From Spartobacteria bacterium LR76 (GTDB lineage: Bacteria; Verrucomicrobiota; Verrucomicrobiia; Chthoniobacterales; Terrimicrobiaceae), in the NCBI GenBank assembly GCA_003054655.1, contig QAYZ01000013.1:186001-250000 (forward strand): a DNA stretch of 64,000 nt, given 5' to 3'. Of the stretch, positions 48,927-54,483 are shown one piece after another. Below the pieces are notes generated by a model that worked only from the letters and a program-made list of their open reading frames with translations, did no database searches and was not told the DNA's origin. The number at the start of each line of letters is the position of its first letter. Positions within the stretch are counted from its first letter, which is position 1. The position numbers and the translations under genes were made by a program.

Positions 48927-49823
48927 TTACTTGCCCCAGTGGCGGATCAGCGTGTCGGCCATCTCGGCCGGGGTCGGGGAAACGGCAATACCCGCGTCCT
49001 CGAGCGCCGCGATCTTGGCCGCAGCCGTGCCCTTTCCGCCGGAGACAATGGCGCCTGCGTGGCCCATGCGGCGTCCCGGAGGCGCGGTCGCCCCGGCGAT
49101 GAAGGCCGCGATCGGCTTCTTGCAGTACTCCTTGGCCCATGCCGCGGCTTCTTCCTCAGCAGTGCCGCCGATTTCGCCGATCATGATGATGGCCTCGGTT
49201 TCCGGGTCATCGTTGAACATCTTGAGCACGTCGGTGTGCGAGGTGCCGTTAACCGGATCGCCGCCGATGCCGACGCAGGTGCTCTGGCCATAGCCGCGCG
49301 TGGTCAACTGCCACACCGCCTCGTACGTAAGGGTGCCGGAACGCGAGACAACGCCCACGTTGCCCTTCTTGTGAATGTAACCCGGAGCGATGCCGATGCG
49401 GCAGCCGCCGTGGGATTTCTCTCCCTCACCGGGAGTGACGAGGCCGGGACAGTTCGGCCCGATGAGGCGGGTCTTGGAACCGCGCATGGCCTGCTTCACC
49501 TTCACCATGTCGTTGACCGGGATGCCCTCGGTGATCGCGACCACGAGGTCGAGACCGGCGTCGACACCTTCGAGGATCGCGTCAGCCGCGAACGGCGGCG
49601 GAACGAAGACGACGGAAACCGTGGCGCCCGTCTCCTTCACGGCCTGGTCGACCGTGTCAAAGATCGGAACGACGTTGGAGAAAAGCTGGCCGCCTTTACC
49701 GGGGGTGACGCCTGCGACGACTTTCGTGCCGTAGTCGAGGCTGAGCTGGGCGTGCCTGGCGCCGAAGCTGCCAGTGATGCCCTGGATGAGGATGCGGGTG
49801 TCGGGATTGACGAGGATGGCCAT
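48927..49823 (-). CDS. sucD: Succinyl-CoA synthetase, alpha subunit
   Basis: 298 residues. With SucC interconverts succinyl-CoA and succinate, with ATP or GTP formation. CoA-binding Rossmann part [32 protein letters not shown], and the phosphohistidine loop [17 protein letters not shown] with the active His. Ends near [18 protein letters not shown] 9-base gap follows the restored end of the VOC gene; because that gene is frameshifted, its ribosomes now read about 127 bases into sucD in another frame. Confidence 0.95.
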
Positions 49824-49832
49824 GGTGTGGGG

Positions 49833-50223
49833 TTAAGAATGGGAATGTTCCGGGTGATGCGCGGAACGCTGGTGAATGGTGATATCGTATGCCGTCGTTC
49901 TGCTTGATGCCGAAAAATCGGCAGATCGGACTCTCCATCGGCTCAAAAGCAAAGGGAACTCCGGCTTCACGGGCCTTGGCGGCAAATGCGTCGAGATCAT
50001 CGACCTCAAACGCCACTCCAGGTCCGCTTTGACCTGATGGAGGCCAGGCATTGGAAATCGCGACCGTGACACCGGCGACATCGTACTCGATCCACCAGAT
50101 GCCCGGCATGGTCTTGATCTCTTCCGCGCAATGAACCTTGAGCCCGAGAAAGCCCTCGTAGAAGGCGCGCGCACGGGCCACGTCCGTGACGGGGTATCCG
50201 ATGAATGCGACTTCCTTGATCAT
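49833..50223 (-). pseudogene. VOC-family protein gene, broken by a one-base insertion
   Basis: A glyoxalase/bleomycin-resistance-type (VOC) domain: FIGYPVTDVARARAFYEGFLG, WWIEYDVAGVTVAI, VAFEVDDLDAFAAKARE, PICRFFGIKQNDG. The original frame then goes astray and reads on into sucD, ending at 49696. Removing the base at 49889 (GGCATACGAT to GGCAACGAT on the minus strand) restores G-N-D-I-T-I-H-Q-R, the normal VOC C-terminus, and a stop at 49833 that leaves a 9-base gap to sucD. So this is either a recent pseudogene or an assembly error. The location between sucC and sucD is unusual. Confidence 0.8.
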
Positions 50224-50232
50224 TTTCGTTTA

Positions 50233-51420
50233 TCAGGCAGCCTTGGCGACCGCGCCGACAACCTTCTGGGCGGCGTCGAGGATGTCGTCGCCGGTGATAA
50301 GGGCGAGACCGCTCTCCGCGAGCGTCTTCTTGCCCGCCTCGACGTTGTTGCCTTCCAGGCGAACGACGAGCGGGATGCTGAGGCTGGTCTCGCGGGCTGC
50401 TTCCACGATGCCGTTGGCAATGATGTTGCAGTCCATGATGCCGCCGAAAATATTCACGAGGATGCCCTTCACGTTGGCATCGCCGAGGATGATGCGGAAG
50501 GCTGCGGAAACCTGGTCCTTGCTCGCGCCGCCGCCGACGTCGAGGAAGTTCGCCGGCTTGCCGCCCGCGTATTGAATGATGTCCATTGTCGCCATGGCGA
50601 GACCGGCACCGTTGACGAGACAGGCGATGTTGCCATCGAGACCGATGTAATTCAGCGAGTACTCGGAGGCAGCCACCTCGCGGGGGTCTTCCTCGCTCTT
50701 GTCGCGCATCGCCACGATGGCGGGCTGACGGTAGAGCGCGTTGTCGTCGAAGTTGAACTTCGCGTCGAGCGCGAGGAGTTCGCCCTTGGCCGTGATGACC
50801 AGCGGGTTGATCTCGACCATCGAACAGTCGCAATCGATGAAGAGCTTGTAGAGATTGGCGAACAGCTTGACCGCCTGATTGGCGAGCGGGCCGGTGAGGC
50901 CGAGCGTCGCAGCGATCTTGCGGCTCTGGAAAGGCATGAGGCCGAGGGCCGGATTCACTCCCACGCGAATGATCTTCTCCGGGGTGTGCTCGGCGACGGA
51001 CTCGATGTCCACGCCGCCTTCGGTGCTGGCGATCACGACCGGGGCCGAGGTGGCTCGGTCGAGGAGAATGGCGAAATACAGTTCCTTCGTGATGTCGACG
51101 GCTTCACCGACGAAAACCTTGCCGACTTCCTTGCCCTCGGGGCCGGTCTGGTGCGTCACGAGCACCTGGCCGAGCATCTGGGAAGCGAGGTCGCGGGCCT
51201 GGGCCGGGGTGTCGCAAAGATGCACGCCGCCCTTGAAGCCATTCTTGAACGTCCCCTTGCCGCGTCCGCCCGCGTGGATCTGGGCCTTGACGACGATCTT
51301 TCCTCCGAGCTTCGAAGCAACGGCTTCGGCTTCATCAGGAGTAAAAGCAACCGCTCCGGGTTGGGTCGCGACGCCAAATTTGGCGAAAAGCTCACGCGCT
51401 TGGTATTCGTGGATGTTCAT
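50233..51420 (-). CDS. sucC: Succinyl-CoA synthetase, beta subunit
   Basis: 395 residues. ATP-grasp fold with [50 protein letters not shown], and [16 protein letters not shown]. Binds nucleotide and, with SucD, makes the phosphohistidine intermediate. The VOC gene starts 9 bases beyond its stop. A dyad (51483-51506) and a weak TTGCAA-N17-TAATCC pair lie upstream. Confidence 0.95.
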
Positions 51421-51531: not shown

Positions 51532-54483
51532 TCAGTCCCAGGTGGTGCCATCGGCACGGCACCACTTCTGCGCCTGGGCGTTCCCCAGTTTTGCCGCGGC
51601 ACGATACATTTCGCGCGCCCCAGCCTCGTTTTTTTCCACGCCGATCCCCCCCTCCAGGCACATGGCGTAGAAGTACATGCAGAGCGGGTTTTTGCGCTCC
51701 GCTCCGTCCTTGAATAAGGCGGCAGCCTTGGCGGGATCTTTCTCCACGCCCTGACCGTTGATGTAGAGGACGCCAAGGTTGCCTTGGGCGTCGAGCAATC
51801 CGCCCTCGGAGGCCTTGCTGAAGAACTCAAAGGCCTTGGCGTAATCAACGTCGACCACGTCAGGAATGCCCTTTTTGTAGATATCCCCGAGGAGATTCAT
51901 CGCCCGGGTGTGATTCTTGAGCGTGGCGGCAGTGGTGAGGAGTTCAAAGGCTCGCTGCGGATTTCGGAACACTCCTTTTGAGCTGTCGGGGCTGAGATAG
52001 CACTCCGCGAGGAAGTACATGCCATCGGCATCCTGTCCATCGGCAGCCTTGGTGAACCACTTGGCGGCGCTGACGAAGTCCGGCGCGGAAACTCCCTGTC
52101 CGCTGGCCTGCATCTGGCCAGCATAGACCATCGCCTCGGTCTGGTCCTGCTCCGCCGCCGCGATAAACCATTTCAACGCATCTGCCGGATCGCTCACTCT
52201 CAGCATTTCGCCGAGGGCCATCTGGGCGGAGCGTACGTTCAGTTCCGCCGCCGCCTCAAGCGGGCGCCGCAGCGCAGCCACCTCGCCAGGCGGAACTTTC
52301 CGAGCACGTAGACTCGCAGCCACCACATCGAGCTGGTCGAGCGGTTTTTTCTCCTCCGGATAACGCGCAGCGATCTTCGTATAGGCGTCGAGGGCTCCGG
52401 GAAAGTTACCCTCGCGCAGCAGCGCATCCGCCTTGGCCATGTCGTCGAGGTAGGGCTGATTGGCCGGGGGCGGCGTGGGTGTTGCCGGAGCTGGCGTCGG
52501 CGTCGGCGTGGCGGAGACGACCACTGGCTCGGCAGGCTTATCCGCCGGGGCGCTTTTCCGCAGTCCCAGGGCTGCTCCGATCACTCCCAAGATGACGAGC
52601 GCGCCAACCGATACGCCGAGGATGAGAAACGGGGAGGTCTTTTTCTTTTCCTCTGCCGCAGGGAGGGAGGGCGAATCCGTTGCCGAAACCAGAGGCGGAA
52701 CCATGGGCGTGACCACCGGAGCCGGCGGCACGGTGACGGTCGATCTGGCCTCGGACAGGCATGTGACAAACTCGGCTGCCGTCGCAAAACCCTTCGCAGG
52801 GTCGAGCGCCTGGCGCAGCGCGTTGTTGCCATCCTCGGAGAGTCCCGCGATGGGAACGAACGTACCAATCGACGACCCTCCCCTCACCCCGCCAAGCATT
52901 TCAAAGGCGAGCGTGGCCACGGCGTAAACGAAGGCATTGCGGGGATTCCCGGCGAACGCGCCCGCTGCCTTCATCAGCGCGTAAGATGTCGCCACCATCG
53001 TGGCGTCGGAGGGCAGGTTTGACGCCCCCATCTGGCTCAGGCCGAGGAAACGCGGGTGGCACGTGGTCCAGCCCGTCACCGGGGTCGAGACATCCCCACC
53101 AGCCAGAGTCACCTCATGGGCGGCGATGTCCGGGCAATTCAGTCCCGCCTCCGCGATGGAGTCAAAAGCCTCCGCCAGCGGCGCGAGCAGCCGCACCGCC
53201 TCGGGCACCGGCAGGACACGCCGGGCGCGCAGCAGGTCGAGCAAGGTCGGCCCCTCAACCCATTCCAGCACGATGAAGCTGTGGTAGTCGGTACGCTCCA
53301 GCGAAAGGATTTTTTGCAGAGCCGGAGCGCGCAGGCGCTGGAGGGTTTCAATCTCCTGCTCAAGCTGGGTGAAGGCCTGCGAGGTGGCAAATTTCTCCGA
53401 GTGCAGGATGAGCACTGCCACAGTCTTGCCATCCTCCAGGCTGTCGGCCTTGAACAATCGGCCATGATCCGAGGCCACGGTCTCGGCGATGAGCCGAAAA
53501 CGTCCGGCGAGCAACTGCCCGGAGGCGAGAGTTTCCGCCTCGGCGATGGGCTCGGGCAGGACGACGGTTTCAAAGGACTCCGCATCCGCACTGGCGGAGG
53601 GAACAGACGCGGCTCCAGACTGCCGCAGGGCCGCGAGACACTCCTCGATCTCTTTGCGCAGGGCGGCGGGCGTGGCCGGGCGATCCTCCGGGGCCTTGGC
53701 CATCATGTGCTTGAGCAATCCGACCACCGGCGGGATCTGCCCGTCGAGCGACTGAAACGGCGGGTCCCGATGCAGATGCTGGCTCATCACCTGGGCGAGC
53801 GAACCGCTGAACGGCGTCTTTCCCGCCAGCATGTACCAGAGCGTGACCCCGAGGGAATAAATGTCCGAGCGCACGTCGATCTCCCGCTCGTCCAACTGCT
53901 CGGGACTGGCGAAGTGCGGCGTGCCGAGGAATCCGCCCGCCGTGAGCGTGGCGGCATCCTCGCCGTCCTCCTTGCTGGAGTTCTTGGCGAGGCCGAAGTC
54001 GATGACCTTGACCGTGAACTCCGTGTCATCCTCCCAGATGAGCATGAGATTCGACGGCTTGATATCGCGATGAACGAGGCCCTGCTTCTCGGCGGCCGAC
54101 AGCGCACGGCAGACCTGCAAGGCAATCTCCAGCGCCATCACAGGCGGCACCGCGCCCTCGCGTTTCATGAAGGCCTCGACGGTTTCCCCGTCGATGAACT
54201 CCATGGCGTAGAAGTAATTATCCTCCTCGTTGCCGAGGTGAAAGACGGTGGCCACATTCGGGTGGCGCAGGGCGGCGGCGGCCCGGGCCTCGCGCAGGAA
54301 TCTCTGCCGTGCGATGTCGCTGTTCAGGTACGTGCCATTGATGACCTTGAGGGCGACGAAGCAACGCAGATTGGTATCAAACGCCTTGTACGTAATACCC
54401 ATCGCGCCGCGGCCGAGTTCGAACAGCGAACCGTCGTCACGGCGTAAAACCTCGAAATGTTGAAAGCGTACGGGGTCGGACAT
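51532..54483 (-). CDS. Ser/Thr protein kinase with a second, degenerate kinase-like domain and Sel1 repeats
   Basis: 983 residues. Residues 1-290 are a Hanks-type kinase: LGRGAMGITYKAF, VALKV, VHRDIKPSNLML, DFGLAKNSS and SPEQLDEREIDVRSDIYSLG. A second, kinase-like region (about 323-560) lacks the HRD and DFG motifs: in its place is NCPDIAAHEVTL. One membrane helix (about 617-640) is followed by a Pro/Thr linker and six or so Sel1/TPR repeats, outside the membrane by this topology. Stand-alone gene. It probably senses an envelope signal through Sel1 and phosphorylates cytoplasmic targets; those are unknown. Confidence 0.92.
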   Translation of the reverse strand: MSDPVRFQHFEVLRRDDGSLFELGRGAMGITYKAFDTNLRCFVALKVINGTYLNSDIARQRFLREARAAAALRHPNVATVFHLGNEEDNYFYAMEFIDGETVEAFMKREGAVPPVMALEIALQVCRALSAAEKQGLVHRDIKPSNLMLIWEDDTEFTVKVIDFGLAKNSSKEDGEDAATLTAGGFLGTPHFASPEQLDEREIDVRSDIYSLGVTLWYMLAGKTPFSGSLAQVMSQHLHRDPPFQSLDGQIPPVVGLLKHMMAKAPEDRPATPAALRKEIEECLAALRQSGAASVPSASADAESFETVVLPEPIAEAETLASGQLLAGRFRLIAETVASDHGRLFKADSLEDGKTVAVLILHSEKFATSQAFTQLEQEIETLQRLRAPALQKILSLERTDYHSFIVLEWVEGPTLLDLLRARRVLPVPEAVRLLAPLAEAFDSIAEAGLNCPDIAAHEVTLAGGDVSTPVTGWTTCHPRFLGLSQMGASNLPSDATMVATSYALMKAAGAFAGNPRNAFVYAVATLAFEMLGGVRGGSSIGTFVPIAGLSEDGNNALRQALDPAKGFATAAEFVTCLSEARSTVTVPPAPVVTPMVPPLVSATDSPSLPAAEEKKKTSPFLILGVSVGALVILGVIGAALGLRKSAPADKPAEPVVVSATPTPTPAPATPTPPPANQPYLDDMAKADALLREGNFPGALDAYTKIAARYPEEKKPLDQLDVVAASLRARKVPPGEVAALRRPLEAAAELNVRSAQMALGEMLRVSDPADALKWFIAAAEQDQTEAMVYAGQMQASGQGVSAPDFVSAAKWFTKAADGQDADGMYFLAECYLSPDSSKGVFRNPQRAFELLTTAATLKNHTRAMNLLGDIYKKGIPDVVDVDYAKAFEFFSKASEGGLLDAQGNLGVLYINGQGVEKDPAKAAALFKDGAERKNPLCMYFYAMCLEGGIGVEKNEAGAREMYRAAAKLGNAQAQKWCRADGTTWD

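What the first reader, a model, noticed from the sequence alone, without database searches (positions are those of the whole stretch)
49833..50223. One-base frameshift in a VOC gene lodged between sucC and sucD
Removing the single A at 49889 (plus strand) turns a run-on frame into a standard VOC C-terminus (NDITIHQR) and places the stop 9 bases before sucD, mirroring the 9-base gap after sucC. As it stands, ribosomes would read to 49696, into sucD in another frame, which may affect sucD translation. The location of a VOC gene inside the suc operon is itself uncommon.
Basis: seen in the sequence. Interest (0 to 1): 0.6.

Follow-up and report, generated by a model that had tools for sequence, protein, structure and literature searches.

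The report
Sequencing-primer stamp mimicking a gene frameshift
The apparent one-base frameshift in a small gene between sucC and sucD is almost certainly not biology: the 22 bases around it spell the Illumina P7 library primer plus one leftover genomic base, and the two sister species carry the normal, intact gene there.

Summary
In the deposited sequence a single extra base (plus-strand A, 49889) throws a VOC gene between sucC and sucD out of frame, so it runs on to 49696. The cause is not mutation. Minus-strand bases 49906-49885 read CAAGCAGAAcGACGGCATACGA. That is the Illumina P7 primer (CAAGCAGAAGACGGCATACGA) with one extra C. Both congeneric genomes read CAAGGACCC(A/C)GACGGCAACGA here, encoding the conserved DPDGN motif and an intact 129-aa protein that stops 9 bases before sucD. 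The window is 1 edit from P7; the sisters are 5-6 edits from it. Aligning P7 to the G002 allele, taking its substitutions and the inserted T but refusing the deletion, reproduces the window letter for letter. The site occurs once in the genome. The natural sequence already resembles P7, so it is a plausible mispriming site, and this 21-mer is used as a library amplification primer. Best explanation: primer sequence entered the reads by mispriming and was written into the consensus. The real gene is very probably intact. sucC-VOC-sucD is not unusual here: it recurs in at least 13 families of the class. Reads were not available, so the step from primer to consensus is inferred.

The parts
49885..49906 (-). 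P7-like block CAAGCAGAAcGACGGCATACGA (Illumina P7 21-mer plus one retained genomic C), lying over the DPDGN codons of the VOC gene
   Evidence: exact match to CAAGCAGAANGACGGCATACGA, shuffle expectation 0; single site in the whole genome within 3 mismatches; congeners differ here
49889..49889 (-). the extra base (T on minus, A on plus); equals the T of ...GGCATACGA in P7
   Evidence: only indel against two congeners across sucC-voc-sucD
49834..50223 (-). VOC gene; 129-aa intact form expected (TAA 49836-49834), as in both congeners; PF00903
   Evidence: congener ORFs of 129 aa; Pfam Glyoxalase E 1e-13 intact against 3.3e-10 run-on
49696..50223 (-). apparent run-on ORF of 175 aa, overlapping sucD in another frame; judged an artefact
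   Evidence: no relative has the run-on tail
50233..51420 (-). sucC, succinyl-CoA synthetase beta subunit, 395 aa, intact
   Evidence: 99-99.7% identical in congeners
48927..49823 (-). sucD, succinyl-CoA synthetase alpha subunit, 298 aa, intact
   Evidence: 99.7% identical in congeners

Best explanation
The frameshift is a sequencing or assembly artefact. The genome very probably carries CAAGGACCCCGACGGCAACGATATC here, as in congener G002. This resembles the Illumina P7 library primer (CAAG at the 5' end, GACGGCA-ACGA at the 3' end). The primer annealed to this internal site during library amplification or on the flow cell and was extended toward sucD, giving many molecules that begin with primer sequence instead of genome. 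Their reads outvoted genomic reads during assembly or short-read polishing. The consensus took the primer's four substitutions and its extra T but kept the one genomic C where the primer is a base shorter. The net +1 appears as a frameshift. The real VOC gene encodes an intact 129-aa protein, and sucD translation is unaffected. Shown: the primer match, its uniqueness in the genome, the intact congeners and the arithmetic of the edits. Inferred: the mispriming and polishing steps.
For: (1) Minus 49906-49885 is P7 with one inserted base. (2) Edit distance to P7: window 1, G001 5, G002 6; of 200,000 random sets of 4 substitutions plus 1 insertion on the G002 site, none came closer than 3. (3) Optimal alignment of P7 to the G002 allele, accepting substitutions and the insertion but refusing the deletion, gives the window exactly as one of the co-optimal alignments under 3 of 4 scoring schemes. 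(4) G001 and G002 have the intact 129-aa gene, and DPDGN-type motifs with a following IH(Q/K)-like strand are found in the other VOC copies aligned. (5) It is the only indel in sucC-voc-sucD, while other window-specific changes in sucC and sucD are almost all at third codon positions. (6) The 21-mer is a stock library amplification primer (PMC7393490) and is documented to misprime, as an RT primer in CLIP libraries (PMC4858895). (7) Exact P7 contaminates at least 120 public contig stretches, 120 of 124 sites within 200 bases of an end of the stored stretch. Adapter contamination of microbial assemblies is documented (PMC11536531).
Against: No reads or library protocol for this genome were available. 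No other adapter trace was found in it: P5 and exact P7 within 3 mismatches, and TruSeq exact, were all absent; Nextera was not searched. Most public P7 contamination lies at contig ends, whereas this is internal with intact genomic flanks, so the local mix of primer and genome must come from a consensus step that was not observed. The density of changes alone (5 in 17 columns) is not exceptional for this operon (6 in 17 elsewhere between species); the P7 match carries the argument.
Confidence: 0.96

Rival explanations
1. A true chromosomal lesion: four substitutions and a +1 insertion arose in this strain and inactivated the VOC C-terminus, making a 175-aa run-on protein whose ribosomes overlap the sucD start.
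For: The extra base is present in the consensus and sits inside a 620-kb contig away from ends.
Against: All five edits move the site toward a commercial primer; the rest of the gene shows no decay, and neither sucC nor sucD is shifted.
Confidence: 0.02
2. An ordinary one-base sequencing error, for example a long-read indel, unrelated to adapters.
For: A single +1 in an otherwise clean operon is a common error signature; relatives are intact.
Against: It does not explain the four adjacent substitutions that destroy DPDGN or the 21-base primer match; the extra base is not in a homopolymer (GGCATACG).
Confidence: 0.015
3. Programmed +1 frameshifting: the extra base is real and ribosomes skip it to make the 129-aa protein.
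For: The downstream +1 frame encodes the conserved C-terminus.
Against: Congeners encode the protein without any shift; the shift site is primer sequence, and the conserved DPDGN codons are also lost, which skipping one base would not restore.
Confidence: 0.005

Closest known systems
Illumina P7 library amplification primer (CAAGCAGAAGACGGCATACGA) mispriming artefact
   Same: All 21 primer letters are present in order at 49906-49885 on the minus strand; the underlying congener sequence is a plausible partial annealing site with a matching 3' ACGA
   Different: One genomic C is retained inside the primer, and the artefact lies inside a contig with genomic flanks on both sides rather than at an end; documented mispriming cited here is by the same oligo as an RT primer
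Adapter contamination of microbial assemblies (Moeller et al. 2024, PMC11536531)
   Same: Library oligonucleotide sequence deposited as genome sequence
   Different: Usually at contig extremities with an exact adapter; here an internal replacement with one retained base that changes a reading frame
VOC superfamily, PF00903 (Glyoxalase/Bleomycin resistance/Dioxygenase)
   Same: The intact congener protein scores 52 bits against a cut-off of 20.6
   Different: No NCBIfam equivalog reaches its cut-off, so the exact activity is unassigned; methylmalonyl-CoA epimerase in particular is far below cut-off

Membership tests
Illumina P7 primer artefact | Contains the P7 21-mer within one edit | tested here: met
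   edit distance 1; exact match to CAAGCAGAANGACGGCATACGA
Illumina P7 primer artefact | Related genomes lack it at the same locus | tested here: met
   G001 and G002 have CAAGGACCC(A/C)GACGGCAACGA
Illumina P7 primer artefact | The site resembles the primer enough for mispriming, with a matching 3' end | tested here: met
   CAAG plus GACGGCA-ACGA shared between P7 and the congener site
Illumina P7 primer artefact | Reads at the site end in primer sequence and disagree with PCR-free or long reads | not testable with these tools
   no read data available
Genuine frameshift or pseudogene | Change explained by ordinary mutation or decay | tested here: not met
   all edits move toward a commercial primer; no other indel in the operon
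VOC superfamily PF00903 | Score above the Pfam gathering cut-off | tested here: met
   congener protein 52.1 bits, window ORF 40.8 bits, cut-off 20.6
Methylmalonyl-CoA epimerase (TIGR03081) | Score above the NCBIfam cut-off of 114.95 | tested here: not met
   17.1 bits, partial match over residues 6-37

The most novel reading that the evidence does not exclude
Leaving the frameshift aside, the intact VOC protein encoded between sucC and sucD in many families of this class, sometimes as two tandem copies, may be an uncharacterised partner or metabolite-repair enzyme of succinyl-CoA synthetase.
Probability: 0.25. Interest if true: 0.45.

Novelty: not a real feature. Interest (0 to 1): 0.12.

Why it matters
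As biology the frameshift does not matter. As quality control it shows that a library primer can be written into the interior of a long contig with one genomic base retained, so that a search for the exact adapter misses it and it looks like a pseudogene or frameshift. Apparent frameshifts in otherwise healthy genes are worth checking against P5 and P7 with an edit-distance search. The recurrent sucC-VOC-sucD gene order is the more interesting biological lead.

Tried and rejected
Real mutation, simple indel error and programmed frameshifting were considered and rejected (see rivals). The three-sequence alignment mixed strands for G002 and was discarded; replace it. Further stamps in the genome were sought: P5 and exact P7 within 3 mismatches, and TruSeq exact, gave none. 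A second exact GACGGCATACGA (G000 C11:1450397) has an unrelated upstream sequence and is taken as chance; one hit of the reversed control also occurred. Clustering of changes as evidence was tested and found weak on its own. A paper search for a suc-glyoxalase link in Verrucomicrobia found nothing. Methylmalonyl-CoA epimerase was considered for the VOC gene and fails its model cut-off. Laying the whole genome in the Python box was not possible.

Full report
OBSERVATION. On the minus strand the window carries sucC (51420-50233), a VOC gene starting at 50223 and sucD (49823-48927). As deposited, the VOC frame is open for 175 aa to 49696, overlapping sucD in another frame. Without the extra minus-strand T at 49889 (plus-strand A) the frame ends at TAA 49836-49834, nine bases before the sucD ATG; the gap after sucC is also nine bases.

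RELATIVES. The window lies in a 4.75-Mb genome of 16 contigs. Two congeners, G001 and G002, carry the same gene at 95% identity over the part compared. Both encode an intact 129-aa protein ending GIKDPDGNDITIHQRSA(H/D)HPEHSHS, with the stop nine bases before sucD. In a three-way alignment of about 2.5 kb from sucC to the end of sucD, the T at 49889 is the only indel, and window-specific changes in sucC and sucD are almost all at third codon positions. Inference from genome sizes: the genus is probably Terrimicrobium. G002, with 4.8 Mb in 3 contigs, fits T. sacchariphilum NM-5 (4,751,807 bp, three contigs; PMC5532833).

WHAT THE EXTRA BASE IS. The anomaly is wider than one base. Congeners read CAAG GACCC(A/C) GACGGCA-ACGA TATC; the window reads CAAG CAGAAC GACGGCATACGA TATC. 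The window's 22 bases (49906-49885, minus) are the Illumina P7 21-mer CAAGCAGAAGACGGCATACGA with one C inserted. Edit distance to P7 is 1 for the window, 5 for G001 and 6 for G002; among 200,000 random sets of four substitutions plus one insertion applied to the G002 site, the closest approach to P7 was 3. The pattern CAAGCAGAANGACGGCATACGA with up to 3 mismatches has shuffle expectation 0 in the window and one site in the whole genome, this one. The identity of the oligo is documented: it is one of two primers of a commercial library amplification mix (PMC7393490) and the RT primer of Illumina small RNA kits, a primer for which mispriming artefacts were reported in CLIP libraries (PMC4858895).

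HOW IT PROBABLY AROSE. The natural site shares CAAG at the 5' end and GACGGCA-ACGA at the 3' end with P7, so it is a plausible mispriming site (inference). If P7 primes there, the product carries primer sequence and then true genome from TATC onward, which is what the window shows. Aligning such a product to the G002 allele and accepting substitutions and the inserted T but refusing the one-base deletion reproduces the window exactly in one of the co-optimal alignments, for 3 of 4 gap scorings; the G001 allele does not, so the original base was probably C. This is the signature expected of a consensus or polishing step fed with primer-bearing reads (inference; no reads were available).

SUPPORTING SURVEY. 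All sites in the stretches retrieved were the exact 21-mer, and 120 of 124 lay within 200 bases of an end of the stored stretch, in line with published adapter contamination at contig ends (PMC11536531). The window's form, internal and with a retained base, is unusual among these. In its own genome no P5 (3 mismatches), exact P7 (3 mismatches) or TruSeq trace was found, so the artefact is local.

THE GENE ITSELF. The intact congener protein is a PF00903 VOC protein (52.1 bits, cut-off 20.6); the run-on form scores lower (40.8). No NCBIfam equivalog reaches its cut-off, and the nearest solved structures are mostly unassigned glyoxalase/bleomycin-resistance-type proteins. In the 21 copies aligned from relatives a DPDGN-type motif is followed by a C-terminal strand with an invariant His (mostly IHKR/IHQR); the run-on tail occurs only in the window. 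By inspection the usual VOC metal-ligand positions are not conserved (inference). The sucC-VOC-sucD order is not peculiar to this strain. In a class-wide sample the VOC match lies on the same strand within 300 bases upstream of sucD in 23 of the 56 genomes with a match, from 13 families (my count from the tables). Three genomes (G032, G050, G155) have two tandem copies.

VERDICT. Observation confirmed; biological interpretation not supported. The frameshift is a P7 primer artefact in the consensus (0.96), and the real gene is very probably intact. The conserved placement of the VOC gene in the suc operon is a modest independent lead.

Noticed in passing
window 48927-51420; L006, L011, L179: VOC gene between sucC and sucD recurs in at least 13 families of the class, with two tandem VOC copies in G032, G050 and G155; function unassigned, invariant C-terminal His (mostly IHKR/IHQR).
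   Followed up: partly
L146, about 2066 bases from the start of its reverse complement: An exact P7 21-mer preceded by poly-T lies about 2 kb from the stored end with no N nearby, in a public genome contig; another likely internal primer artefact.
   Followed up: no
L087, L095, L103: Poly-T plus P7 plus GAT and index-like bases with N nearby inside long scaffolds of named genomes: adapter probably left at scaffold joins.
   Followed up: no
window 51532-54483 (-): Upstream of sucC lies a 983-aa protein that reads as a serine/threonine kinase with C-terminal Sel1-like repeats; its last part is among the stretches where congeners diverge most from the window.
   Followed up: no
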